This document shows positions 1 through 13,551 of a stretch of 41,479 nt of DNA, piece by piece. A program made the translations under genes and the position numbers. The stretch spans positions 1 through 41,479 of the forward strand of contig JALOTL010000027.1 of NCBI GenBank assembly GCA_025457915.1, written 5' to 3'. Each line of letters begins with the position of its first letter. Position 1 is the stretch's first letter. The notes under the pieces are model-generated. The model saw only the letters and a program-made list of their open reading frames with translations. It made no database searches and had not been told where the DNA came from. Source of the DNA: Spirochaetota bacterium (lineage in GTDB: Bacteria; Spirochaetota; UBA4802; UBA5550).

Positions 1-372
1 CAATATATTCATTTGTGCGCACATAGTCAATACATTTACGCGGGCGGGCCTTTCCGCGGGTCCGTCATTAATTTAACGAATATGGTCTGATAAATGTAAA
101 ACTTGATGCGGGTTGAGGGTTGATGAAGGGCGGATATGCAGGGAATTACCTGTCGGGAAGTTTTTTTGATTTTTTCCCGTCGATGCCGGAATAAGATTCG
201 ACCAAGTCTTTTTCTTCTTTATCGATGTATTTGGTTCTTTCCATTTTTCTGGTTCAGGAATAATTACTGAATTCACACCCGTTTTGTGATTGATTTTTGT
301 TGATAATACTCATAATCATTATCGTTGTCAATTAATTCATGAATTACTTTAATTTAAAGAGGTCCACACAAG
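1..372. other. Non-coding upstream region of the first cassette
   Basis: This AT-rich stretch has no convincing gene. It holds a G/C-rich imperfect inverted repeat near 40-62, a Fur-box-like element at 310-324, a possible promoter (TTGATT, 17-nt spacer, TAATCA) overlapping it, and the AAAGAGGT ribosome-binding site just before 373. A 67-codon minus-strand frame at 73-276 has no ribosome-binding site or recognisable domain and was not accepted. Confidence 0.5.
310..324 (+). promoter_or_regulatory. Fur-box-like operator
   Basis: The 15-mer TCATAATCATTATCG matches the 7-1-7 Fur consensus TGATAATNATTATCA at 12 of 14 defined positions. A further half-site, TGATAAT, sits immediately upstream at 301-307. 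It lies about 50 bases before the first lipoprotein start and overlaps the best -10 candidate, which is where a repressor would be expected. Binding by a Fur-family metalloregulator is inferred from the motif only. AT-rich upstream DNA can produce such matches by chance. Confidence 0.45.
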
Positions 373-1029
373 ATGAAAATCCAGGCACGGTTCGCGGGTT
401 TGATCTTCATATCCGTATTCATTATATCCCTCGCCGGTTGCGGCGGGCAGGGGACCAGGTCATCCGGGTCGAATGAGGGCGACCGGTACCTCAACGCGGG
501 CATACAGAAGCTTTCCGAGAAGAAGTACGACGATGCGGTCCGCTACTTCTACAAGGTCGCGGAGATCGACAAGGGCGACAGCCGGGCGTCCTACGGGGTG
601 GCGCGCTGCACCCTCGAGAAATACAAGTTCCTGCTTTCCGGTGCACAATCCGCTGATGGCGGGGAAAAGAACACGATCGTGAAGGTGTACGGCGATTTTG
701 TCGCGATGCTTGAGAAAAAGGACTGGAAAGGGATCACTGGTTCCGTATCTGCTCTATCCGTTTTGCATGGTTCAGGTACTCTTGTGACTGATGATGCCTC
801 GTTACGGACTAGCCTGGATGCGTACCTCGGCCTTATCACATCAGCAACAATGAATATATACCTTAAATCACTCGCCGTGGACGGAGTACGGGTGAAAGGA
901 AATGTGGCGGAAGTAAAGCTCAAAATGGCGGGTGGATCGGCAACCGATGAGGTATACCTGATACGAGACAAGGGCAGGTGGAAGATCGCCCTGTTTACGG
1001 GTTCCATCGTCACTGGAGGCGCAAAATGA
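373..1029 (+). CDS. TPR-like lipoprotein, cassette 1 gene A
   Basis: This is a 218-residue predicted lipoprotein. It has a signal peptide ending in lipobox LAGC with Cys23, then about 50 residues resembling a TPR helix pair (Gly/Ala/Tyr spacing, 'KKYDDAVRYF'). A C-terminal domain of about 120 residues follows, containing 'LHGSGTL', 'LDAYLGLITSATM' and a terminal Trp-Lys strand. The same architecture and motifs occur in the gene at 1924-2658, so the two are paralogues. The start is set by AAAGAGGT seven bases upstream. The stop overlaps the next start (ATGA), so it is probably translationally coupled to the secreted protein downstream. No known family or function was recognised. It is presumably anchored in a membrane facing the periplasm or the cell surface. 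Confidence 0.85.
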   Translation: MKIQARFAGLIFISVFIISLAGCGGQGTRSSGSNEGDRYLNAGIQKLSEKKYDDAVRYFYKVAEIDKGDSRASYGVARCTLEKYKFLLSGAQSADGGEKNTIVKVYGDFVAMLEKKDWKGITGSVSALSVLHGSGTLVTDDASLRTSLDAYLGLITSATMNIYLKSLAVDGVRVKGNVAEVKLKMAGGSATDEVYLIRDKGRWKIALFTGSIVTGGAK

Positions 1030-1835
1030 AGAAGGTGATGACGTCGATAATCGCGATATGCGTAGTCATGCTTGCGGCATCCGTGTATTCGGAGGATTAC
1101 AATCCCTTCGATGACAAGGGGATGAAGGAGGTCGGGAGGATAACCCACGAATCCAATATTGTGAGCCGTGCTCTGCTGAAGGTATCCGACTGGACGAGCA
1201 CAAAAAAGGATGTCCCCGAGGAACAACGCAAACTCATCGATACGGAGAAGAAGGTATTCAAGGACTCCGGCCCATTTACGTACCCGAACGTGAAGGTGGA
1301 CACCACAACCCTCTCTGAACGCGCGTGGAAGAATTCTCCCCAGGGGAAGGAACTGGACGCGATGGTCGACAGGTTCATGGGCGCGACTAAGGAGGAGAAG
1401 AAATTCGACGACGCGAAGTATAACCGCGAGATGCAGGGCAAGCTCGCGAGCAAAGACCCGAAGGTGCTCGAAGAAGTGAAGAACAATCCCTTCGCGCCAA
1501 AGGACCTCAGGGATAAGGCGGGGGAGAAGCTGGCTGCGGCGGAGAAGGAAACGGAGGTCAAGCAAAATCAATGTCCTGAATGTCCTCAGGATACAGTTTG
1601 TATTGATCTTCCAAGAGTGCATGTTGATCGAGAAACGGTAAGAAGCATGGCTAAAGAACCTGTAACACGTGATTATATAATAACCCGCCCAAAATATAAA
1701 AATCTACCTCTGTATGTTGTTGATGCTGTTTTATCGAGAGGTCCAGATAAAGTAATTGAAGGTGATACTATGTCTGAAATAGGAGTACCGGGTATGCTAA
1801 GAATACGAAGGATTTGGTGTATAAAAAGAAAGTAA
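1026..1835 (+). CDS. Secreted charged protein with AT-rich C-terminal tip, cassette 1 gene B
   Basis: This is a 269-residue protein that begins at the ATG overlapping the preceding stop codon. Residues 1-22 form a signal peptide ('VVMLAASVYSE'). The body is lysine- and glutamate-rich and probably helical. From about base 1560 the base composition turns AT-rich, and the final ~90 residues are different in character: they contain a CPECPQ cysteine pair, basic stretches and a final CIKRK. The paired position after lipoprotein A suggests that the two proteins work together in the envelope. No family was recognised. The composition break suggests that the tip was acquired or exchanged by recombination, which is an inference. 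An upstream extension of this frame to 978 lies inside gene A and lacks a ribosome-binding site. Confidence 0.8.
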   Translation: MKKVMTSIIAICVVMLAASVYSEDYNPFDDKGMKEVGRITHESNIVSRALLKVSDWTSTKKDVPEEQRKLIDTEKKVFKDSGPFTYPNVKVDTTTLSERAWKNSPQGKELDAMVDRFMGATKEEKKFDDAKYNREMQGKLASKDPKVLEEVKNNPFAPKDLRDKAGEKLAAAEKETEVKQNQCPECPQDTVCIDLPRVHVDRETVRSMAKEPVTRDYIITRPKYKNLPLYVVDAVLSRGPDKVIEGDTMSEIGVPGMLRIRRIWCIKRK

Positions 1836-1923
1836 AAAAATATCGAAACTGTATTATAGATGAAAATTTACATTATTGTCCTATAGTTATACCGCATGAT
1901 TTTTTTAAACAGGAGAACCACAT

Positions 1924-2658
1924 ATGAAAAGAGCTCTTATATCAATACTCATCCTTCTCACGCTCATCGCGTGCGGCTCCGGGCAAAAGACCGCGAGTGA
2001 GTCATCTTCGTCTGTGCTGGACGAGGGACTCGCCGCTGTGAAGAAGGGCGACTACAAGTCGGCATATCTTAAGTTCGGGGATTTTGCCCGACAGAATCCC
2101 GCGGACATACGAGGGCCGATCAACATCGCGAATGCCCTGGCCCTGGAAGGAAAATACGATTCCGCCATGGCCCGTTTCCATGAAGCGGGCAAGCTGAACG
2201 CGAACGACCCGCGCATTGCGCGCGGTGTGTCGCTCTGCGCCCTTTTACGCCATGACCGTCCGCTGGCGGTCGGCAGGGAAGCGGGAGCGGGTGACCTTGC
2301 AAAGATCCTTGACGCGTATGCGAAGTTCACGGCCGCGCTCGCGAAGCGGGACGCGAAGGGGATTGCCGCGAACGCGAGACTGCGCTCGCTTTTGCATGGA
2401 GCCGGGCTCCTGCCCGTAACAGACGAGGAGCTTACGCGGGCCCTGGACGCGTATCTTGGGATCGTCACATCGACCACGATGCGGGCGTACACGGCCGCAC
2501 TCAAGCCCGGGCGGGTGGTGAGCGACGGAACGGTCGCGCGGATCGAGCTTGCGAGCACGGACGGGTCCGTGAAGGACGCCGCGTACTGCAGGAAGTTCGG
2601 GGGGAAGTGGCAGGTCTCGATATTCACAAGGTCGCTCATTGAAGCAGGGGGAAACTGA
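1924..2658 (+). CDS. TPR-like lipoprotein, cassette 2 gene A
   Basis: This is a 244-residue lipoprotein with lipobox LIAC (Cys17), followed by two TPR-like helix pairs at about residues 35-100 ('KKGDYKSAYLKF', 'LEGKYDSAMARF'). A C-terminal domain shares 'LHGAGLL', 'LDAYLGIVTSTTM' and the 'GGKWQVSIFTRSL' ending with the gene at 373-1029. It is therefore a diverged tandem paralogue with one more TPR unit. The start follows AGGAG after an 88-base AT-rich gap. Its coding sequence is much more GC-rich than the flanking gaps. Part of this gene, around 2170-2220, is duplicated as a relic near 6660-6726. The function is unknown; a scaffold or adaptor role would fit TPRs. Confidence 0.85.
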   Translation: MKRALISILILLTLIACGSGQKTASESSSSVLDEGLAAVKKGDYKSAYLKFGDFARQNPADIRGPINIANALALEGKYDSAMARFHEAGKLNANDPRIARGVSLCALLRHDRPLAVGREAGAGDLAKILDAYAKFTAALAKRDAKGIAANARLRSLLHGAGLLPVTDEELTRALDAYLGIVTSTTMRAYTAALKPGRVVSDGTVARIELASTDGSVKDAAYCRKFGGKWQVSIFTRSLIEAGGN

Positions 2659-2659
2659 C

Positions 2660-3457
2660 ATGAAGAAATACACGGTACCGACGCTGATTATCGCGATGCT
2701 GTTCGTCTTCACCCTCCTCGCCGGTGTTTCCGTCGCGGAATGGACCGACAAATGGTGGGATGATATCGAGAGCTATACCAAGAAAAAAGTATCAGAGATG
2801 CCATATCCCGCCATCTCCTATTCGATTAAGAAACGATATGATCGGGTGCGTGAAGTGGTGAAGGACCTCAAGGAGAAGGGACTGGCTTCTTTCGCGAAAA
2901 GCGACGAGGAGTCGTTCAAGAAGGAGGGGGACGTCGACGATACCCGGATCACGAAACGCGCGGCCGGCGAGTACAGGCCTCCGCAGGAGAAGGAGGACAG
3001 TCTCACGAAGCTCCTCCGCGAAGCCCGTGAGGAGGTCGAGAAGCAGGAACCGCGCCGGAAGGTGGAGATCGATTTCGCAGCAGAGATCGCGAAGTTCAAG
3101 AAGGAACAGGAGATGCTGGCTGTGGCGGAGAAGAAAGATGCTGAACTACTCAAGGATCTTATTGGGGATTGGTGTTATTCTGTCTATGTTACTCGCGAAA
3201 TTGCACACACTCCCTGCGCTGTTGATGATACATTTAAGCTTACAGCATCAATATATGATAATAAAAAAGGAAAGGTGAGGTCCGGATGCCAAATACAACC
3301 GGGAGAAGCTGTTCTTGAATTTTTATTAATTATTATTAATGGTGAAATATATTTCCAATATCCAAATGGAGAGAGGGATAAAATTGAATATAATAAAGCG
3401 AAAGGTGAAATGGTGGGCGGCTTTAATAGGAATTGGATATTACATAAATGCAAATGA
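2660..3457 (+). CDS. Secreted protein with AT-rich, lipocalin-like tip, cassette 2 gene B
   Basis: This is a 265-residue protein starting one base after the stop of gene A, with GGGGGA upstream of the ATG. Residues 1-24 form a signal peptide ending near 'GVSVA'. The central ~120 residues are highly charged and probably helical. From about base 3130 the composition falls sharply to AT-rich. The last ~105 residues ('LIGDWCYSVYV' ... 'GGFNRNWILHKC') have alternating beta-strand character, with the G-D/T-W opening seen in small lipocalin-like barrels; this resemblance is weak. It occupies the same position as the protein at 1026-1835, but clear sequence similarity between the two B proteins is not visible by eye. 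No function is assigned. Confidence 0.8.
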   Translation: MKKYTVPTLIIAMLFVFTLLAGVSVAEWTDKWWDDIESYTKKKVSEMPYPAISYSIKKRYDRVREVVKDLKEKGLASFAKSDEESFKKEGDVDDTRITKRAAGEYRPPQEKEDSLTKLLREAREEVEKQEPRRKVEIDFAAEIAKFKKEQEMLAVAEKKDAELLKDLIGDWCYSVYVTREIAHTPCAVDDTFKLTASIYDNKKGKVRSGCQIQPGEAVLEFLLIIINGEIYFQYPNGERDKIEYNKAKGEMVGGFNRNWILHKCK

Positions 3458-4090: not shown

Positions 4091-4144
4091 TTATTCAAAT
4101 CCATAAAATGTTATTATTTTAAACATACTGTGCAGGTGAAATTC

Positions 4145-4384
4145 ATGGAAGCAGCCCGCTACATAAAGAAAATCGAATCATCAAGCATCCTCATCGAGGG
4201 TCTTGATCGTTTCGCAGGACAGGAAGTTGAGATTATAATACTGTCTTCGGAAAACAGGCCATCGAATTTACACCACAAGGAAAATTTATACGGCGTGCTT
4301 AACGGCTATGCTGACAATGCAAAAATATCTGCAGAAAAACAGGCATGGGAATCGGCTGCGCAGGAAAAACATGAAAAACGTTGA
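4145..4384 (+). CDS. Antitoxin of PIN-type toxin-antitoxin pair 1
   Basis: This is a 79-residue acidic/basic small protein immediately upstream of a PIN-domain toxin and overlapping it by 14 bases, which is the usual order of type II modules. The N-terminus ('ARYIKKIESSSILIEGLDRFAGQEVEIIIL') has the short beta-rich look of AbrB-like or DUF2281-like antitoxins. The C-terminus ('AKISAEKQAWESAAQEKHEKR') is a charged helix suited to toxin wrapping. ATG 4145 is preferred over GTG 4130 because AGGTG lies six bases before it. It presumably neutralises the toxin and represses its own promoter. The family assignment is tentative; the toxin-antitoxin role rests on context. Confidence 0.7.
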   Translation: MEAARYIKKIESSSILIEGLDRFAGQEVEIIILSSENRPSNLHHKENLYGVLNGYADNAKISAEKQAWESAAQEKHEKR

Positions 4385-4736
4385 TGCCAATGTTATTCTG
4401 AGGTATCTTCTTGGAGATCTTCCGGATCAGGCGGCTATTGCGCGGGATATCATCAGCAATAATGAGATTTTTCTTGCGGGCGAGGTTCTCGCAGAAGTTG
4501 TCTATGTCCTTGAAAAAGTATACAGGGTGACCAGAAAAGAGATCAGCCATGTACTCGTTCTTTTTATCAGAAGTGACACTGTAATAATGAACAACAAACC
4601 GGTTATGGAAGCAGCGCTCGATGTTTATAGCCGGGAAACCATTGATTACGTTGATGCGCTGCTTTGCGGATACAGCCTGGTTCAGAAGAGTGAAATTATA
4701 ACCTTTGATAAAAAGCTGAAATCATTAACGAGCTGA
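4371..4736 (+). CDS. PIN-domain ribonuclease toxin 1 (VapC-like)
   Basis: This is a 121-residue PIN-domain protein with the expected acidic residues: Asp5 in 'VDANVILRYLLGD', a Glu in 'AGEVLAEVVYVLEK', Asp in 'TIDYVDALL' and Asp in 'ITFDKKL'. PIN toxins cleave RNA with a Mg-dependent acidic site, and all four positions are present, so it should be active. The start at 4371 has AGGAA six bases upstream and overlaps the antitoxin by 14 bases. A 5'-extended frame to 4308 lies wholly in the antitoxin and is unlikely. It is bounded upstream by a MITE-like element and downstream by a direct repeat, which suggests horizontal acquisition. Confidence 0.85.
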   Translation: MKNVDANVILRYLLGDLPDQAAIARDIISNNEIFLAGEVLAEVVYVLEKVYRVTRKEISHVLVLFIRSDTVIMNNKPVMEAALDVYSRETIDYVDALLCGYSLVQKSEIITFDKKLKSLTS

Positions 4737-5113: not shown

Positions 5114-5160
5114 ATATACTTGTAAATATACTTGACTTTTCCCCGCCTTTTGGTATTTTT
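5114..5160 (+). promoter_or_regulatory. Promoter and candidate operator of toxin-antitoxin pair 2
   Basis: ATATACTTG occurs twice in direct orientation, at 5114-5122 and 5126-5134, a 12-base spacing of about one helical turn. The second copy runs into TTGACT (5132-5137), and TATTTT (5154-5159) follows after 16 bases. This makes a plausible -35/-10 pair 17 bases before the antitoxin ATG. Direct repeats at this position would suit autorepression by the ribbon-helix-helix antitoxin encoded next. This is inferred from position and repeat structure. Confidence 0.45.
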
Positions 5161-5176
5161 CATTCAAGAGGTTTTT

Positions 5177-5404
5177 ATGCCGCAAATATCATTATATATA
5201 GACAAGGATACATTGAGCAAGATAGAGAAAGCCGCCAGCAAGGAAAAGATTTCTATTTCCAAATGGGTCGGCAAACACATAAAAAAAATAATCAAAGATG
5301 ATTATCCGCAAGGATATTTTGAATTATTCGGATCAATAGCAGATGAATCATTTAAGATTAAAGCTTTATCTTTTAAACATGATTCCGAAAGAGAAAGTCT
5401 ATGA
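5177..5404 (+). CDS. Ribbon-helix-helix (CopG-like) antitoxin of pair 2
   Basis: This is a 75-residue protein whose first 40 residues match the ribbon-helix-helix pattern: a short strand 'QISLYIDKDTL', helix 'SKIEKAASKEK', turn 'ISISKW' and a basic second helix 'VGKHIKKII'. Such antitoxins bind operator DNA as dimers through the strand and block the cognate toxin with the C-terminal tail. ATG 5177 has AAGAGGT nearby; an upstream TTG at 5132 falls in the putative -35 box and is not a start. It overlaps the toxin by four bases (ATGA). The paired 9-mers at 5114-5134 are its likely operator. Confidence 0.8.
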   Translation: MPQISLYIDKDTLSKIEKAASKEKISISKWVGKHIKKIIKDDYPQGYFELFGSIADESFKIKALSFKHDSERESL

Positions 5405-5805
5405 TTTACTTTCTGGACACAAATATCTGCGTATATTTTCTTAAAGGTCTATACCCATCGATATTAGAGAATATTCAGACTAAAAATCCGAATAACATTA
5501 AAATTCCTTCGATCGTAAAGGCAGAACTTCTTTATGGTGCGGAGAAAAGTCAGAATAAAACAAAAAATTTAAGCAATATTTTCAAATTCCTTGAACCTTT
5601 CGAAATTGTTTCTTTTGACGATGAAAGCTCAATTACTTATTCTAAAATACGGGCGGCGATGGAGTTGAAGGGGGCTGTTATTGGACCAAATGATTACCTG
5701 ATTGCCGCAACAGTATTGGCTAAGAATGGAACTCTTGCGACAAATAATATAAAAGAATTCGAAAAAGTAAAAAACTTAAAAATAGAAAATTGGACAGTAT
5801 CATAA
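5401..5805 (+). CDS. PIN-domain ribonuclease toxin 2 (VapC family)
   Basis: This is a 134-residue VapC-type PIN protein: Asp6 in 'YFLDTNICVYFLKG', Glu in 'KAELLYGAEKS', Asp in 'GPNDYLIAAT' and the late 'TNNIKEFEKV' Asn/Glu segment. The classical 'DTNICIY...' opening and 'I.P.DLLIA' core make it a closer match to canonical VapC than the toxin at 4371. It is translationally coupled to the antitoxin by ATGA. Its stop codon TAA directly abuts the MITE-like element at 5806, so that element may have inserted at the 3' end of the module or supply its terminator hairpin. It is probably a stable, complete module. Confidence 0.88.
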   Translation: MIYFLDTNICVYFLKGLYPSILENIQTKNPNNIKIPSIVKAELLYGAEKSQNKTKNLSNIFKFLEPFEIVSFDDESSITYSKIRAAMELKGAVIGPNDYLIAATVLAKNGTLATNNIKEFEKVKNLKIENWTVS

Positions 5806-7013: not shown

Positions 7014-8903
7014 TTACCTGTAATACCCGACCCTCACGTATTCCGGCCTGTAGTTGAACCGCTTGCCGTATACGGGATGGAGACCGTCTTCGTATTGATT
7101 TTCATATTCCCATTTCGCTGCGTTCGGGCCATCGGAAACGACGTCCTGCCAGATCTTGAGGTTGTCGATTAATGCGCAACCATCAAGATCAAATCCTTTT
7201 AAACTTATTTTTATCTTGGCGTTATCATTATTAATTTTTTTGTTTGTTCTTAACCTTTCTATACCATCAATATATATTTTTACAGTATTTTTCTTAAAGT
7301 CACCATTATTATTTATAAGTAAATAAAGGTGATGTAATTTATATATTTGATTTGTATTGCACCATACAGATTCAGGTGGTTGAGTTGGATTAAATTCTGA
7401 ATTTTCTGGTAAATCTATATATAAACTATGAGTATCATAATTATGATGATATTGGATGTTGCCAATATATATTGTTAAATATGTGAAAGATCTTCCTGTA
7501 AGTCTTATAAAAGCAGATAGTGTTACTTTATTCAAATTATAATTTTTATTGCCCAAAGGTGTAATATTGATGAAAAATGGGTATTGAAAAAAAAGATTAT
7601 AATAACCCCTGGCACCAAAACCATAATTATATTTCATTAATTCGGATGTTGCTGATCCTGTTCCGCTCATTTCAATAGTAGGTATGATTCCATAAGGGGC
7701 GATGGTTGGATTAATAATGTCATCGATGCTTTCCATCCTGCACCAGTAAAAAGGTCTCTGGAAAATAAAAGAACCATTGGATAAATCGACATTAAACTCT
7801 TTCGGGGGAGGTGAAACGATGTTGTTGTAATCAATCAGTTTTGTCAATGGAGTCATCCCCAAATCTGTAACGGGGTTTTTTCCATTAATTGTTATAGTAA
7901 AAGATTTTCCATCAGAGAGATTGCCATATTCTCCTTCAACGCCGGAATCGAAAATCCGACTCAAGTCCATCCGTTCGGCAGGGTACCCTGCCAGGAGCAC
8001 GTTCTCCCTCGCGTCTTTTAAAACATGGCCCCTTATCATCGGGCCCGATCCGTCGCAGTCTCCGAACGTTCCGAAGCCGTGATCCAGGTTCGACGCGTCC
8101 TCCAGCCTGTCAGTCCTCTTGCTCAGCTCTCCTGTCGAAAAATTGAAGGCGTATGCCCGCGTCATGGGGTTGCGGGCGATGTCCGTCACCTTTACCTGTC
8201 CGCTTGAGACTTCAAGCGCGTAAAGCCTGTTGTCCCTTAATCCGAGCGGCTTTATTATCACGGCCCTGTCTTCGCCGGAATAATCGCAGTTGAGCCCTGT
8301 CTTTTCGCCTGAGGTTTTATCTTTTATGACTATCCCGCCGAGCGAGGACGGATCGATATCTTCGCTGAAATACAGGAACATTCCTTCGTCAGGGTCCTGG
8401 ATTTTTTTGTTGTCGTGCGTAAATCCGACGACCTCGGGCGGCACCGTGTCGGTCAGCGCCGAAGTTGAGAAACACCAGGAGCGTCCCTTTCCTGTTTTAT
8501 TTCCGCTGAAGTCCTTTATGTCGCCGTTTATTCTGACCCTGTAGTCAGCCGAGGGCTGGAGGTTTTCTTCCGGGGTGAAAATCAGGAGGCTCCCCTCGTA
8601 AAGCTCCGCCGATCCCTTTACCGCCGCCTGTTCACGGACGCCGTCTTTTTTCGCGACAGTGACAAGGCCGTCGTATACGCATGATTCATCTATGGTTTTA
8701 TTGAACGAAACGAGCACTGACCTGTTTGTCCCGACCCCCTTTTCATTGTTCGAAGGATAGGTATAGATTATATTGAGCGCCTGGTTAAAAGACGCGGACA
8801 TGGGAGCGAACAGCGGGATCTGGGTCAGGCCGTGGTAGAGGTTGTTGCAGGCGGTATTTAAAAACAGAGTCGATAAGATAAGAATCTTATGGATATTTCT
8901 CAT
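7014..8903 (-). CDS. Large surface lipoprotein with Ig-like and LamG-like domains
   Basis: This is a 629-residue lipoprotein with lipobox NTAC (Cys19). Residues about 47-150 and 154-257 are two Big_5/SbsA-type Ig-like domains ('YPSNNEKGVGTNRSVLVSFNK', 'PPEVVGFTHDNKKI', each ending 'WCFST' or 'FNFST'). The C-terminal ~350 residues are beta-rich and resemble a concanavalin/LamG-like domain ('LDGCALIDNLKIWQD' ending). Bases about 7190-7900 are markedly AT-rich compared with the Ig-encoding part, giving a mosaic gene. A TTGACA-containing promoter lies about 90 bases upstream. It is probably an adhesin or glycan-binding surface protein; the ligand is unknown. Its 3' neighbour is a gene-poor spacer. 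Confidence 0.82.
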   Translation of the reverse strand: MRNIHKILILSTLFLNTACNNLYHGLTQIPLFAPMSASFNQALNIIYTYPSNNEKGVGTNRSVLVSFNKTIDESCVYDGLVTVAKKDGVREQAAVKGSAELYEGSLLIFTPEENLQPSADYRVRINGDIKDFSGNKTGKGRSWCFSTSALTDTVPPEVVGFTHDNKKIQDPDEGMFLYFSEDIDPSSLGGIVIKDKTSGEKTGLNCDYSGEDRAVIIKPLGLRDNRLYALEVSSGQVKVTDIARNPMTRAYAFNFSTGELSKRTDRLEDASNLDHGFGTFGDCDGSGPMIRGHVLKDARENVLLAGYPAERMDLSRIFDSGVEGEYGNLSDGKSFTITINGKNPVTDLGMTPLTKLIDYNNIVSPPPKEFNVDLSNGSFIFQRPFYWCRMESIDDIINPTIAPYGIIPTIEMSGTGSATSELMKYNYGFGARGYYNLFFQYPFFINITPLGNKNYNLNKVTLSAFIRLTGRSFTYLTIYIGNIQYHHNYDTHSLYIDLPENSEFNPTQPPESVWCNTNQIYKLHHLYLLINNNGDFKKNTVKIYIDGIERLRTNKKINNDNAKIKISLKGFDLDGCALIDNLKIWQDVVSDGPNAAKWEYENQYEDGLHPVYGKRFNYRPEYVRVGYYR

Positions 8904-9235: not shown

Positions 9236-9874
9236 CTATCTCCAGCTGTCATTTCCAAAATCCGTGCAGACATCGCCGAAGGCGCTTGAACAGGCTTTCA
9301 CGCGCCATGGATCTGTCGGAGCGGTTCCGGTATGCAGAAAATTCATGGTGGTCGAAGTCATGTATTCCCATGGCTGTACCGGCGTGTATTGAATGTAATA
9401 ATAGGTCGCGCCCGGCACTCCCGTCCATACCGCATTGCCCGTCTGTCCGTTATAATTCAAATTGAAATACGCGTCCGCAGTAGCAGATGTAATATCCGAA
9501 ATTTTCTGGATCTGCATCGCGACCGCGGAAAGACCTTCACCGTTTATGAGTACCGGGAGCGATATTCCCGCATGCGTTATTAAAGATCTCGGCGGCTGGG
9601 CACCTACCGAGCCGTACTCCTCCACCCAGATCACGAAGGTCAGGATCCTTGCGTTGGGTATTACAAGTGTTATAATGCTTACTGGGTCATAGACCTGCGA
9701 CATTATAAGGGTCGCATCTGAAACGAAACCCGCGTAGGCCGCAACATGAAGCTTTGTGGTATTGGCAGGAGGATTTCCGATCAACAGCATGACCCTGGCG
9801 AAATTGGCCGTGCTGTCGTAGCAGGAAAATAGTGACATGCCGATTAATAAAGCGCCAACCAGTGCCTTTTTCAT
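9236..9874 (-). CDS. Array lipoprotein 1 (FN3-like)
   Basis: This is a 212-residue lipoprotein, lipobox LFSC with Cys18 followed by YDS. It is the last member of a six-gene tandem paralogue array. Residues about 22-115 form a conserved N-terminal beta-rich domain ('LHVAAYAGFVSDATLI', 'ILTFVIWVEEYG', 'SLPVLINGEGLSAVAM'). The C-terminal ~85 residues have the fibronectin-III-like pattern 'VWTGVPGATYYYIQ' ... 'WRVKACSSAFGDVCTDFG'. Its first ~55 residues are almost identical to array member 2, and the leader GGAGATAAACC before ATG is shared too, so duplication or gene conversion was recent. A surface-exposed binding or structural role is likely; there is no catalytic motif. Confidence 0.85.
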   Translation of the reverse strand: MKKALVGALLIGMSLFSCYDSTANFARVMLLIGNPPANTTKLHVAAYAGFVSDATLIMSQVYDPVSIITLVIPNARILTFVIWVEEYGSVGAQPPRSLITHAGISLPVLINGEGLSAVAMQIQKISDITSATADAYFNLNYNGQTGNAVWTGVPGATYYYIQYTPVQPWEYMTSTTMNFLHTGTAPTDPWRVKACSSAFGDVCTDFGNDSWR

Positions 9875-9967
9875 GGTTTATCTCCGGGAATGCTTTTTAT
9901 TTATAAACAGATTATCGCATTAAAACCTGTTTTGCATCTCGATTAGAATCGATAAATCAGTCAGCTG

Positions 9968-10606
9968 TTACCAGCTCGATTCGCCCCATTCCGTGCAGAC
10001 GTTGTTGAAGGTGCTGGAGCAGGCCCGAACATGCCATGGCTGAGTCGGCAGAGAGCCGTTATGGTAAATATTCAATACAGGATTGCTGATGTCAATCCAC
10101 ATGTTTCCGCCCCAGTATTCCAGTTCATATTTGTTTGCCCCAGGCACACCAGTCCATACGACATCGCCTGTCTGCGCGGTATAGTTTATGTTGAAAAATG
10201 CATTGGCATTATTGTTTGGAGGTGGCATCGTCGTGCTGGAGATTTTCTGCATCTCCATGGCGACGGTAGCGAAACCTTCGCCGCTGATAATTACCGGGAA
10301 AGATACCCCGACGTGCCCGGCGACTGTATTTTGGGTTCCTAATACGGTTTCTTCAACCCATACAACGAAGGTCAGTATCCTGGCGTTGGGTATTATCAGG
10401 GCTATTATGCTTGTAGGTTCATATGACTGGGTCATTATAAGGGTCGCGTCCGAAACGAACCCGGCATAGGCCGCTACATGGAGTTTAGTGGTGTTTGAGG
10501 GCGCTCCGCCGATCAGAAGCAGCACCCTGGCGAAATTGGCCGTGCTGTCGTAGCAGGAAAACAGGGACATGCCGATTAATAACGCGCCGACCAGTGCCTT
10601 TTTCAT
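9968..10606 (-). CDS. Array lipoprotein 2 (FN3-like)
   Basis: This is a 212-residue lipoprotein with a signal peptide nearly identical to member 1 (Cys18, LFSC). The N-terminal domain shares 'TTKLHVAAYAGFVSDATLIM', while the C-terminal half diverges: it has an Asn-rich linker ('PPPNNNANAF') and a different FN3-like face ('VWTGVPGANKYELEYWGG'). The protein ends GESSW at the typical final Trp. Conserved N-terminus and variable C-terminus suggest a common anchor with differing ligand-facing domains. It has its own strong promoter (10639-10666). The gene is preceded by GGAGATAAACC. Confidence 0.85.
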   Translation of the reverse strand: MKKALVGALLIGMSLFSCYDSTANFARVLLLIGGAPSNTTKLHVAAYAGFVSDATLIMTQSYEPTSIIALIIPNARILTFVVWVEETVLGTQNTVAGHVGVSFPVIISGEGFATVAMEMQKISSTTMPPPNNNANAFFNINYTAQTGDVVWTGVPGANKYELEYWGGNMWIDISNPVLNIYHNGSLPTQPWHVRACSSTFNNVCTEWGESSW

Positions 10607-10638
10607 GGTTTATCTCCGGAAATATCAGTATGTACACT

Positions 10639-10666
10639 ATTATAAGGAAAGCCGGATTAATTTCAA
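10639..10666 (-). promoter_or_regulatory. Promoter of array lipoprotein 2
   Basis: On the minus strand TTGAAA (10661-10666) and TATAAT (10639-10644) are separated by 16 bases, ending about 30 bases before the start codon. TTGAAA-N16-TANTAT recurs upstream of array members 4 and 5. Confidence 0.7.
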
Positions 10667-10707
10667 CCAGTTTTTGGAGATTTTAGGGTCGTTGAAGCCG
10701 TGGTAAA

Positions 10708-11322
10708 TCAGGAGCTTGAGACGGCAGACCATATGCTGTAAACATCGAATGCCGGTGAATAAATCCTTACCCTGTGGTCTCCCTGCACATAACCGCCGAA
10801 AAGGTGTTTCGTGACAGGTCCGAAAACCACCCTGGAAAAGTCCAGCGCGCCGAAGGGCATGGTCTGTAATTCATAATAGTCCGCAGTCGGTATGCCGACC
10901 GCGCTCCAGTTCATGGAGTTGTCGGCGCCTGACCAGGCAAGGTTGAAGATCGTGTCCGGTATCGAGTTCATGGACAGCGGCACCGCGGTGAATTCCTGGC
11001 CGGTAAGGACGATCGGCAGGGAAACGCCGTAGTGGGAGGCCACGTTTGTGTCGTCGGTCCCCCACACCATGAAGGTCGCGATCCTTGTGTTCGGTATGAT
11101 CAGGGTTATCACGGTATTTGGGGTGAACTCCGCCTTTGATATGAGAGTGGCGGAGGAGACAACGCCCGCGAAAAGGCCCACGTGGAGCCTGGTGATCGTG
11201 ACAGGTCCCCCCGTGGGAGGAGCTTGTATCAGCAATATGACGCGGGAAAAATCCGACGTGCTGTCGTAGCAGGAGAACAGGGACATACCGATTATTAAAA
11301 TGCCGACAAGAGCCTTTTTCAT
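10708..11322 (-). CDS. Array lipoprotein 3 (FN3-like)
   Basis: This is a 204-residue paralogue, lipobox LFSC at Cys18. The start is the ATG at 11322 with GGAGAT upstream; a TTG five codons earlier would place the ribosome-binding site inside the gene. The N-terminal domain has a slightly longer loop ('PPTGGPVTITRLHVGLFAG'). The FN3-like part opens 'MNWSAVGIPTADYYELQ' and ends near 'VYSIWSAVSSS', lacking the cysteine pair seen in members 1 and 2. A TTGAAA element at 11378-11383 with an AT-rich -10 area (18-base spacing to TATCAA) is its likely promoter. Function unknown. Confidence 0.83.
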   Translation of the reverse strand: MKKALVGILIIGMSLFSCYDSTSDFSRVILLIQAPPTGGPVTITRLHVGLFAGVVSSATLISKAEFTPNTVITLIIPNTRIATFMVWGTDDTNVASHYGVSLPIVLTGQEFTAVPLSMNSIPDTIFNLAWSGADNSMNWSAVGIPTADYYELQTMPFGALDFSRVVFGPVTKHLFGGYVQGDHRVRIYSPAFDVYSIWSAVSSS

Positions 11323-11459
11323 AGCATATCTCCACAAATAATAAATATGTACATTGATATTGCGAATATTAAATAAATTTCAACCATCTTTGAAATCTCA
11401 GAGTCAAATTCATTAGAGCATTCATATGAAATTTTTAATACTGCCGAAAAAAACATGTT

Positions 11460-12089
11460 TTAAAATATCGATAGCCAATCCGTGCATGCGTTTATTGACG
11501 CGGAACATCCACGGAGTCTTACAGAGCTGACGATATGACCGATGTTGTAACTTGTGGAAGTTGTAAAATATTTTATTCCCCAGTCATAATCGCCGGACAT
11601 GTCCTCCTGGAGTTCGTAATAATCCGACAGCGGCAACGGGCTCCAGGTACAGAGGAATGTGTCTGTATTATAAGTCACAAACGGCGGATTCACTGTGATC
11701 GGGTTCATATCAAGCGAAACGGCTCCGAAAGGCTGGCCTTGCATGATTACAGGTATCGAGTAGCCGTAATAAGTTATCGCGGGATAAGGGGGGAATGTGG
11801 GAGACGGCCATGTCGTACCGTTTAGCAGCTCTTCAGCGAACACTCCGAAAACGATTATCTGGTTGTTCGGTATTATCATGGTGATAATCGAGCTTGTCGG
11901 GAAGGAGCTTTTTGATATCAGGGTGGAGGGGGATACAGCGCCGAGATAAGCTCCCACGTGAAGTGTAGATATATTAGCCGTAGGCGGCGTCTGGATTAAA
12001 AGCATCACTCTCGTGAAATCACCGTTGCTATCATAGCAGGAGAATAGGGACATGCCGATTAATAAAACGCTGGTCAGCGCCTTTTTCAT
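11460..12089 (-). CDS. Array lipoprotein 4 (FN3-like)
   Basis: This is a 209-residue paralogue with lipobox LFSC (Cys18, then YDS). The N-terminal domain is 'STLHVGAYLGAVSPSTLIS' with an extended proline-rich loop ('GTTWPSPTFPPYPAITYYG'). The FN3-like C-terminus is 'LCTWSPLPLSDYYELQEDM' and ends 'ACTDWLSIF'. The cysteines 'GCSASINACTD' probably form a disulphide. A TTGAAA-N16-TATTAT promoter lies upstream and the leader is GGGGAGATAAATC. It is more diverged from members 1 and 2 than they are from each other. Confidence 0.83.
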   Translation of the reverse strand: MKKALTSVLLIGMSLFSCYDSNGDFTRVMLLIQTPPTANISTLHVGAYLGAVSPSTLISKSSFPTSSIITMIIPNNQIIVFGVFAEELLNGTTWPSPTFPPYPAITYYGYSIPVIMQGQPFGAVSLDMNPITVNPPFVTYNTDTFLCTWSPLPLSDYYELQEDMSGDYDWGIKYFTTSTSYNIGHIVSSVRLRGCSASINACTDWLSIF

Positions 12090-12117
12090 GATTTATCTCC
12101 CCGGGTATATATATTCA

Positions 12118-12145
12118 ATAATAAGATGAATTCCCGGAATTTCAA
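12118..12145 (-). promoter_or_regulatory. Promoter of array lipoprotein 4
   Basis: On the minus strand TTGAAA (12140-12145) is followed after 16 bases by TATTAT (12118-12123), about 30 bases before the start. It begins 12 bases after the terminator hairpin of array member 5. Confidence 0.65.
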
Positions 12146-12157
12146 ATTTTTTTATAG

Positions 12158-12189
12158 GCGCTTCAGGAATTGATTAATCCCTGAAGCGC
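12158..12189. terminator. Terminator hairpin after array lipoprotein 5
   Basis: A perfect 10-bp stem, GCGCTTCAGG (12158-12167) with CCTGAAGCGC (12180-12189), lies just downstream of member 5. The T6 run follows on the plus strand; on the minus strand the tail is CTATAAAAAAATTT, so it looks better as a plus-strand terminator, but its position suits the end of the member 5 transcript. Confidence 0.55.
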
Positions 12190-12213
12190 TTTTTTATATG
12201 GATAAATTTTGCA

Positions 12214-12822
12214 TCAAGTAGTGAATTGCACAAAGTCGCTGCATATGCCGAACACAGAGGAACAGAACCTGGCGCGCGCGGAACTGACGGGGGACGGAAA
12301 ATGACAGGACGTACCCGGTCCCTGGTATATCAGCGCGCCGAAGCCGTCATAAACCTCGTAGTAATCGGCCGAGGGCACGGGGCTCCAGATCGCGTCATTT
12401 TGACCGTTGATTACCTGGAAATTCATCGTGTTTGGCGGGGGCCCGGAATAATCGGTATAAACTTGATTCATCGTTAGAGGGACCAGCGCGAAATCCTGCC
12501 CCTGCATGAGAAGCGGGGGTGAATAGCCTAAATAGGTGACCGCTTCGTTAGGTGGTATCGTTTCTCCAGCCCATACCACGAAAATAAGGATCTGGTTGCC
12601 GGGGATCACCAGCGGATATATGTTGCTCGGGGTGAAGCTGATCTTTGTGATCAGGGTCTGCGGGGTGACGGCCCCCAGGAAAACCCCGACGTACAATTTA
12701 TTGATGTTCACCGTTGGAGGAGTATCGATCAGAAGCAAAACCCTCGAGAACTCGGAACCGCTGTCATAACAGGAAAACAGCGAAGCACCGATGATCAGAA
12801 ATCCAGCCAGCGCCTTTTTCAT
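12214..12822 (-). CDS. Array lipoprotein 5 (FN3-like)
   Basis: This is a 202-residue paralogue, lipobox LFSC at Cys18. The N-terminal domain 'INKLYVGVFLGAVTPQTLIT' and 'ILIFVVWAGE' match the array consensus. The FN3-like part is 'DAIWSPVPSADYYEVYDGFG' and ends 'SSVFGICSDFVQFTT', so the usual final Trp is absent. The promoter TTGAAA-N16-TACTAT (12866-12893) overlaps the terminator of the gene upstream. The leader is CCGGAGATAAATC. Role unknown; surface lipoprotein. Confidence 0.84.
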   Translation of the reverse strand: MKKALAGFLIIGASLFSCYDSGSEFSRVLLLIDTPPTVNINKLYVGVFLGAVTPQTLITKISFTPSNIYPLVIPGNQILIFVVWAGETIPPNEAVTYLGYSPPLLMQGQDFALVPLTMNQVYTDYSGPPPNTMNFQVINGQNDAIWSPVPSADYYEVYDGFGALIYQGPGTSCHFPSPVSSARARFCSSVFGICSDFVQFTT

Positions 12823-12865
12823 GATTTATCTCCGGAAAGGTCTATTTATTTGAAAGTATATTAAT

Positions 12866-12893
12866 ATAGTATAAAAAAATCGCCGCTTTTCAA
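12866..12893 (-). promoter_or_regulatory. Promoter of array lipoprotein 5
   Basis: On the minus strand TTGAAA (12888-12893) and TACTAT (12866-12871) are spaced by 16 bases. The -35 box is part of the 3' arm of the terminator stem belonging to array member 6, so the two signals share the same bases. Confidence 0.6.
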
Positions 12894-12919
12894 AGTTTTT
12901 TTATCTTTAAAAAAAGCGG
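12883..12919 (-). terminator. Intrinsic terminator of array lipoprotein 6
   Basis: On the minus strand CCGCTTTT (reading from 12919) pairs with AAAAGCGG (to 12883), followed by CGATTTTTTT. It lies about 30 bases beyond the stop of member 6 and would separate it from member 5. Confidence 0.6.
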
Positions 12920-12948
12920 CCGCGGATTTCGTATTATACCTGTTCCGG

Positions 12949-13551
12949 TCACCAGTTGAGATATTCCCAGGCCGTGGACAGGCTGAAGACCGTCGAATAG
13001 GCCCTGGCCCTGAGCGATCCCGGCTGGTGTCCCGGGTTGAAACTGTTAAACGGCCCGCTGTACGCGGTCTCCCAGAGCCCGGCGTTAGCGTTGTATTCCT
13101 GGAGCTCGTAGCCCGTGGCGCCCGGTATCGCGTTCCAGCTCACGATGAAGGTCCTTGAATCCGCGAACGGACCCAGCGGCGAGCCTGTAATATTGGCCAG
13201 TTCAAGCGCGACCGGGGTCAGGGCCTGCCCGTTGAGGATTACCGGAAGCGATACGCCCGCGTGGGTAAGAATCTCCGTCCTTCCGCCGTTCAGCCCCTCG
13301 GCCCATATGCTGAAGGTCACCAGCGTACCTGAAGGTATTATCATCGGGATGGCCGTGCTGGGGGTAAAATCCGCCTCCGTGATGAGCGTTTCCGGCGAAA
13401 CGAAAAGCAGGAAAACGCCCACGTGCAGTCTTGTCGTGTCAGCCGGCATGTTGCCGGTAAGGAGCAGGACCCTTGAAAAGTCCGATGCGCCGTCATAGCA
13501 GGAGAGGCTCAAGAAAACCGCCATAACCGGCGCCCATATTATTTTCCTCAT
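12949..13551 (-). CDS. Array lipoprotein 6 (FN3-like), most divergent member
   Basis: This is a 200-residue paralogue at the promoter-proximal end of the array. Its signal peptide differs from the others (lipobox SLSC, still Cys18) but the mature N-terminus 'YDGASDFSRVLLLTG' and the domain 'TRLHVGVFLLFVSPETLIT' are clearly homologous. The FN3-like C-terminus has the textbook pattern 'VSWNAIPGATGYELQEYN' and ends 'TAWEYLNW'. The gene is more GC-rich than the others. A TTGATA-N17-TACATT promoter is possible upstream, and the leader GAGAGGATGCC replaces GGAGATAAATC. It may be the ancestral type of the array. Confidence 0.84.
   Translation of the reverse strand: MRKIIWAPVMAVFLSLSCYDGASDFSRVLLLTGNMPADTTRLHVGVFLLFVSPETLITEADFTPSTAIPMIIPSGTLVTFSIWAEGLNGGRTEILTHAGVSLPVILNGQALTPVALELANITGSPLGPFADSRTFIVSWNAIPGATGYELQEYNANAGLWETAYSGPFNSFNPGHQPGSLRARAYSTVFSLSTAWEYLNW

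What the first reader, a model, noticed from the sequence alone, without database searches (positions are those of the whole stretch)
373..3457. Two tandem lipoprotein/secreted-protein cassettes with AT-rich divergent tips
Two consecutive A-B pairs show homologous lipoproteins (A) each coupled to a secreted charged protein (B). Both B genes switch at about bases 1560 and 3130 from GC-rich to AT-rich, and the tips share no visible similarity with each other. A conserved anchor followed by exchangeable C-terminal tips is reminiscent of cassette-exchange systems (variable adhesins, polymorphic effectors). No toxin motif or immunity gene is visible, so effector status is not claimed. Seen: duplication and composition break. 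Inferred: tip exchange and A-B partnership.
Basis: partly seen in the sequence, partly recalled or inferred. Interest (0 to 1): 0.72.

Follow-up and report, generated by a model that had tools for sequence, protein, structure and literature searches.

The report
Lipoprotein–secreted pairs with foreign tips
In an uncultured spirochaete, two neighbouring gene pairs each make a membrane-anchored protein and a secreted partner whose last ~100 residues are written in foreign-looking DNA that starts right after a short DNA sequence shared by both genes, as if different end pieces had been stitched on at the same seam.

Summary
A1-B1 (373-1835) and A2-B2 (1924-3457) are two tandem lipoprotein/secreted-protein pairs. 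A1 and A2 are 35% identical (TPR + lumazine-binding/NTF2-like). Both B genes drop in GC3 at one point: B1 at 1563 (0.76 to 0.16), B2 at 3134 (0.75 to 0.25). None of 284 ORFs in 400 kb of the same genome shows such a break.

New here: (i) the breaks lie 12 nt and 0 nt from a 28-nt seam (1523-1550, 3109-3136) that is 25/28 identical and in the same frame, although the B stalks do not align as proteins; 0 of 3000 real gene pairs match this well. (ii) An A relative occurs in one other genome of 393 sampled in the phylum, again joined to a secreted charged B by an ATGA overlap, with a third unrelated tip. (iii) All three stalks have 0 Cys and all three tips 4 Cys. (iv) A Fur-box-like site (16/19) precedes A1.

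'Conserved anchor' is not supported; seam and architecture are what is shared. No immunity gene follows any B, so a Maf-like toxin is disfavoured. Best reading: Fur-linked A-B module displaying a disulfide-rich binding tip, with tips acquired by in-frame recombination at the seam. Function is inferred.

The parts
305..323 (+). Fur-box-like site AATACTCATAATCATTATC, about 50 bp upstream of the A1 start
   Evidence: 16/19 to GATAATGATAATCATTATC; only site with <=3 mismatches in the window, 0 in 100 shuffles; 0 in 400 kb of the same genome
373..1029 (+). A1: lipoprotein, TPR plus lumazine-binding/NTF2-like C-terminal domain, 218 aa
   Evidence: lipobox LAGC read from sequence; Pfam Lumazine_bd_2 23.4 bits (cut-off 22.1), TPR_19 below cut-off; 35% identical to A2
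1026..1835 (+). B1: exported protein, charged Cys-free stalk plus 4-Cys tip, 269 aa
   Evidence: signal peptide read from sequence; composition; ATGA overlap with A1; no family match
1523..1550 (+). seam copy 1 (EKLAAAEKE in frame)
   Evidence: 25/28 identical to seam copy 2; unique to these two places in the genome; 2/6000 codon shuffles reach the score; 0/3000 real gene pairs
1563..1835 (+). B1 tip, AT-rich, GC3 0.17, 4 Cys
   Evidence: GC3 change point LR 92; coding periodicity; no relatives
1924..2658 (+). A2: TPR lipoprotein, 244 aa
   Evidence: AlphaFold2 mean pLDDT 82, TPR matches in PDB
2660..3457 (+). B2: exported protein, charged Cys-free stalk plus 4-Cys tip, 265 aa
   Evidence: signal peptide read from sequence; composition; no family match above cut-off
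3109..3136 (+). seam copy 2 (EMLAVAEKK in frame)
   Evidence: as seam copy 1
3134..3457 (+). B2 tip, AT-rich, GC3 0.25, 4 Cys; predicted helix then about 8 strands (low confidence)
   Evidence: GC3 change point LR 66; model pLDDT 48; no relatives

Best explanation
A1-B1-A2-B2 is a duplicated two-gene module, probably one operon under an iron-responsive (Fur-type) switch. A is a lipoprotein with a TPR platform. B is a partner exported by a signal peptide and made by coupled translation; it has a long charged Cys-free stalk ending in a small domain with 4 Cys, presumably disulfide-bonded outside the cytoplasm. A most likely tethers or positions B at the cell envelope and the tip binds something outside, such as a ligand, nutrient carrier or surface. 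The tips are the variable part: AT-rich DNA of foreign composition joined in frame to each stalk at, or 12 nt after, a short DNA seam that both B genes share. Shown: gene layout, A homology, A-B adjacency in a second genome, composition breaks, shared seam, Cys pattern, Fur-like site. Inferred: joining of tips by recombination at the seam, A-B contact, disulfides, iron control, binding function.
For: A-B adjacency in 3 of 3 cases across two genomes, two of them with ATGA overlap and one with a 1-nt gap. GC3 breaks outside the genome's range. Shared in-frame DNA seam at both breaks although the stalk proteins do not align, with identical codons at all six shared residues including rare GCT. Three mutually unrelated tips, each with exactly 4 Cys on Cys-free stalks. 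Tips are genuine coding sequence. Fur-like site absent from 400 kb of background. TPR model of A with pLDDT 82.
Against: No sister strain shows the same stalk with another tip. The third B lacks the seam, and its GC3 decline is mild and not at the tip boundary, so the seam may be particular to this locus. Stalks are unrelated, so the shared-anchor half of a cassette model is missing. The third pair has no Fur-like site upstream. No tip donor or reservoir was found. Binding function and A-B contact are untested.
Confidence: 0.5

Rival explanations
1. Maf-like polymorphic toxin: B is a secreted antibacterial toxin with an exchangeable toxic C-terminus and A is the partner lipoprotein, as in mafA-mafB of Neisseria.
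For: Same layout: lipoprotein gene directly upstream of a gene for a secreted protein with a variable ~80-110 aa C-terminus (published for maf; here). Tips of deviating composition.
Against: No ORF that could encode an immunity protein follows any of the three B genes: 88 bp between B1 and A2, and no convincing same-strand ORF directly after B2 or B3. No toxin family match; no DUF1020 or Hint match; no extra tip cassettes in the genome.
Confidence: 0.17
2. No exchange: B genes are ordinary fast-evolving paralogues whose C-termini drifted to AT-rich codons, and the seam is a conserved linker peptide.
For: Seam is in frame and encodes a similar peptide; the signal-peptide DNA is also partly alike (D13); charged stalks diverge quickly.
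Against: Abrupt change points of LR 92 and 66 against a maximum of 27 in 284 ORFs; tip GC3 outside the genome range; identical codons in the seam including a rare one, against 35% sharing in A1/A2; flanks of the seam differ completely.
Confidence: 0.25
3. Tips are not selected domains but readthrough or fusion of the B frames into neighbouring AT-rich DNA after loss of the original ends.
For: AT-rich composition continues past the stop codons into the spacers; the left 8 kb of the contig is a mosaic with AT-rich islands.
Against: Tips keep coding periodicity GC1 > GC2 > GC3 in the B frame over 90 and 107 codons, the other frames contain stops, and each has exactly 4 Cys as in the third B.
Confidence: 0.07
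4. Assembly chimaera joined at the repeated seam.
For: The genome is in 50 contigs and the module lies at a contig edge.
Against: The longest exact run shared by the seam copies is 10 nt, below usual assembly k-mers; frames stay open across both seams.
Confidence: 0.03

Closest known systems
Neisseria maf genomic islands (mafA lipoprotein, mafB secreted polymorphic toxin, mafI immunity); PMC4524018, PMC4287609
   Same: Lipoprotein gene directly upstream of a gene for a secreted protein with a variable C-terminal domain of ~80-110 aa; lineage-restricted; variable end joined behind shared sequence.
   Different: No mafI-like ORF, no DUF1020, no Hint domain, no mafB-CT cassettes; the stalks are not homologous; the shared sequence is only a 28-nt seam; TPR lipoprotein; tips with 4 Cys.
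Polymorphic toxin systems in general (CdiA, Rhs, TpsA/TpsC)
   Same: N-terminal carrier with exchangeable C-terminal ends; tips with deviating composition.
   Different: No immunity gene, no conserved carrier, no known delivery domain, no toxin fold match.
Spirochaete antigen variation by gene conversion (Borrelia vls, Treponema tprK; from my own knowledge)
   Same: Variable parts of envelope proteins in spirochaetes.
   Different: No silent donor copies found in this genome; whole foreign C-terminal domains rather than mosaic segments.
TPR envelope lipoproteins such as BamD and LpoP
   Same: A is a lipoprotein with a TPR platform.
   Different: BamD model score 29 bits against a cut-off of 81.4; A carries a lumazine-binding/NTF2-like C-terminal domain and is linked to B.

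Membership tests
Maf system (mafA-mafB-mafI) | Lipoprotein gene directly upstream of a gene for a secreted protein with a variable C-terminus | tested here: met
   3 of 3 A-B pairs in two genomes
Maf system (mafA-mafB-mafI) | MafB N-terminal DUF1020 domain | tested here: not met
   No such Pfam match in B1, B2, B3
Maf system (mafA-mafB-mafI) | Immunity gene directly downstream | tested here: not met
   88 bp from B1 to A2; no convincing ORF on the same strand directly after B2 or B3
Maf system (mafA-mafB-mafI) | Alternative C-terminal cassettes in the genome | tested here: not met
   Tips and seam found only once per B gene in the genome
Polymorphic toxin systems | C-terminal toxin domain | tested here: inconclusive
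   No family match; toxicity not testable here
Polymorphic toxin systems | Same carrier with different tips | tested here: not met
   B stalks are not alignable beyond chance
TPR lipoproteins (A) | Lipobox signal peptide | tested here: met
   LAGC in A1 and LIAC in A2, read from the sequence; no predictor was run
TPR lipoproteins (A) | TPR fold in the mature protein | tested here: met
   AlphaFold2 pLDDT about 90 over residues 31-160; TPR matches with rmsd 1.7-1.9 over about 85 residues
Fur-regulated operon | Fur box in the promoter region | tested here: met
   16/19 site at 305-323
Fur-regulated operon | Iron-dependent expression and Fur binding | not testable with these tools
   needs gel shift or expression data

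The most novel reading that the evidence does not exclude
A lineage-specific, iron-controlled display system in a spirochaete in which a TPR lipoprotein pairs with a secreted stalk protein, and unrelated disulfide-rich tips from AT-rich donors are fitted in frame at a short dedicated DNA seam, without immunity genes: tip exchange for binding rather than killing.
Probability: 0.2. Interest if true: 0.75.

Novelty: new variant of a known kind. Interest (0 to 1): 0.45.

Why it matters
Exchangeable protein tips are known mainly from toxins with immunity genes and from pathogen antigens with silent cassettes. This locus suggests tip exchange in a non-toxin, possibly iron-regulated secreted protein of an uncultured spirochaete, with a physical seam that can be looked for in strain metagenomes. 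If strains show other tips at the seam, it becomes a direct test bed for how bacteria acquire new extracellular domains.

Tried and rejected
Toxin, effector or defence families for A and B: none in Pfam, NCBIfam or PHROGs; one PADLOC hit (JetC coiled coil, E 4e-4) in B3, read as coiled-coil composition. Relatives of tips in plasmids, phages and viral contigs: none. Full B proteins in 393 phylum genomes: only self and weak hits to charged or coiled segments. Solved structures by sequence: no usable hit for the tips or the A C-terminal domain. Fold of the B2 tip: single-sequence model pLDDT 48; its Foldseek list repeats fatty-acid-binding proteins but none with E <= 0.001, so this is a lead only. 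The seam elsewhere: not in 45 other genomes of the order (2 or fewer mismatches) and no exact match in viral contigs. The C-terminal domain of A was not fold-searched alone, so NTF2-like rests on Pfam Lumazine_bd_2 for A1 and the predicted topology. No tRNA or Rfam family marks an integration site. A paper search for the related genome's name found nothing.

Full report
What is there. The window is a whole contig (C49, 41,479 bp) of a 3.66 Mb, 50-contig genome that is 96% complete. The nearest genome with a related locus is Spirochaetes bacterium RBG_16_49_21, in the same family, so the host is a spirochaete. Four genes lie head to tail: A1 (373-1029), B1 (1026-1835), A2 (1924-2658), B2 (2660-3457). 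A1 and B1 overlap by ATGA; A2 and B2 are 1 nt apart; each has a purine-rich ribosome-binding sequence. A1 and A2 carry lipoboxes and are 35% identical. B1 and B2 carry signal peptides (my reading of the sequence; no predictor was run) followed by strongly charged stalks.

The composition breaks are exceptional. GC3 falls from 0.76 to 0.16 at 1563 in B1 (likelihood ratio 92) and from 0.75 to 0.25 at 3134 in B2 (66). Among 284 ORFs from 400 kb of the same genome the largest ratio is 26.9 and none falls by 0.4 or more. No sampled ORF has GC3 of 0.26 or below, and none of 2763 90-codon windows reaches 0.17. The tips are coding sequence: the frame keeps GC1 > GC2 > GC3, and the other frames contain stops, many in three of the four. 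So both tips are compositionally foreign.

The seam. The best DNA match between the stalks is a 28-nt stretch, 25/28 identical and in the same reading frame, at 1523-1550 and 3109-3136, ending 12 nt before the B1 break and overlapping the B2 break. It occurs nowhere else in the genome with 3 or fewer mismatches, nor in 45 other genomes of the order with 2 or fewer. The match score was not reached in 2000 codon shuffles. In a larger run 2 of 6000 codon shuffles and 3 of 6000 two-codon block shuffles reached it, and 0 of 3000 pairs of real GC-rich genes of this genome reached even 17 against the observed 19. Identical residues in the seam use identical codons, including rare GCT, whereas A1 and A2 share codons at 35% of identical residues. 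The seam is therefore probably shared DNA, younger or better kept than the A duplication, at the place where both tips begin.

The relative. Of 393 genomes sampled across the phylum, only one other has an A relative. There A is again followed by a secreted charged B with an ATGA overlap. Its tip resembles neither of the others; its stalk has only marginal N-terminal similarity to B2, it lacks the seam, and its GC3 decline is mild and not at the tip boundary. It is called a B on position, export signal, charge and Cys pattern, not on sequence similarity. In all three B proteins the mature stalk has no Cys and the tip exactly 4 Cys. Genes around the pair differ between the two genomes, so the A-B pair is the conserved unit.

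What A looks like. AlphaFold2 with three sequences gives mean pLDDT 82 for A2: TPR hairpins at residues 25-117, then a helical segment and a four-stranded sheet. Foldseek and VIA-align confirm the TPR part. Pfam Lumazine_bd_2, an NTF2-like fold, passes its cut-off for A1. A TPR lipoprotein is a natural tether for an exported partner, but contact with B was not tested.

Control of expression. A Fur-box-like site (16/19) lies at 305-323, about 50 bp upstream of A1. It is the only one in the window, absent from 100 shuffles and from 400 kb of the genome. It suggests, but does not show, that the operon responds to iron. The third pair has no such site upstream.

Interpretation. The best-supported reading is an A-B module that displays a small disulfide-rich tip, with tips acquired from AT-rich DNA by in-frame joining at a short seam. 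The closest known arrangement is mafA-mafB-mafI of Neisseria, but DUF1020, immunity genes and silent cassettes are all missing, so this is not a Maf system and probably not a toxin.

Surroundings. The first 8 kb of the contig is a mosaic of AT-rich and GC-rich pieces, with two PIN-domain toxin-antitoxin modules and a third gene with an equally sharp break (7014-8903, GC3 0.66 to 0.31, ratio 82). That gene's C-terminal half also occurs on other N-terminal parts in the same and in a related genome, so the joining of foreign-composition ends to surface proteins may be general in this lineage.

Noticed in passing
window 7014-8903 (-): Big_5 lipoprotein (629 aa) with a sharp GC3 break (0.66 to 0.31) at codon 321; its C-terminal half (LamG-like by eye) is also found on other N-terminal parts in the same genome (C6) and in G012 (GC3 0.8 to 0.25 there).
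   Followed up: partly
window 9236-13551 (-): Six tandem paralogous lipoproteins (MKKALVG..SCYDS..., 200-212 aa, 35-64% identical to the first) with divergent C-terminal thirds; no Pfam match for the two scanned.
   Followed up: partly
window 4130-4736 and 5132-5805 (+): Two PIN-domain (VapC-type) toxin-antitoxin modules just downstream; the second is AT-rich (GC3 about 0.3).
   Followed up: partly
window 373-1029 (A1), change at 634: A1 itself shows a smaller GC3 break (0.84 to 0.52, LR 24.5) between its TPR part and its C-terminal domain, close to the largest value in the genome background.
   Followed up: no
window 303-331 (-): Promoter-like match (TTGACA-17-TATTAT, 11/12) on the minus strand overlapping the Fur-like site; no convincing gene to its left before the contig ends.
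   Followed up: no
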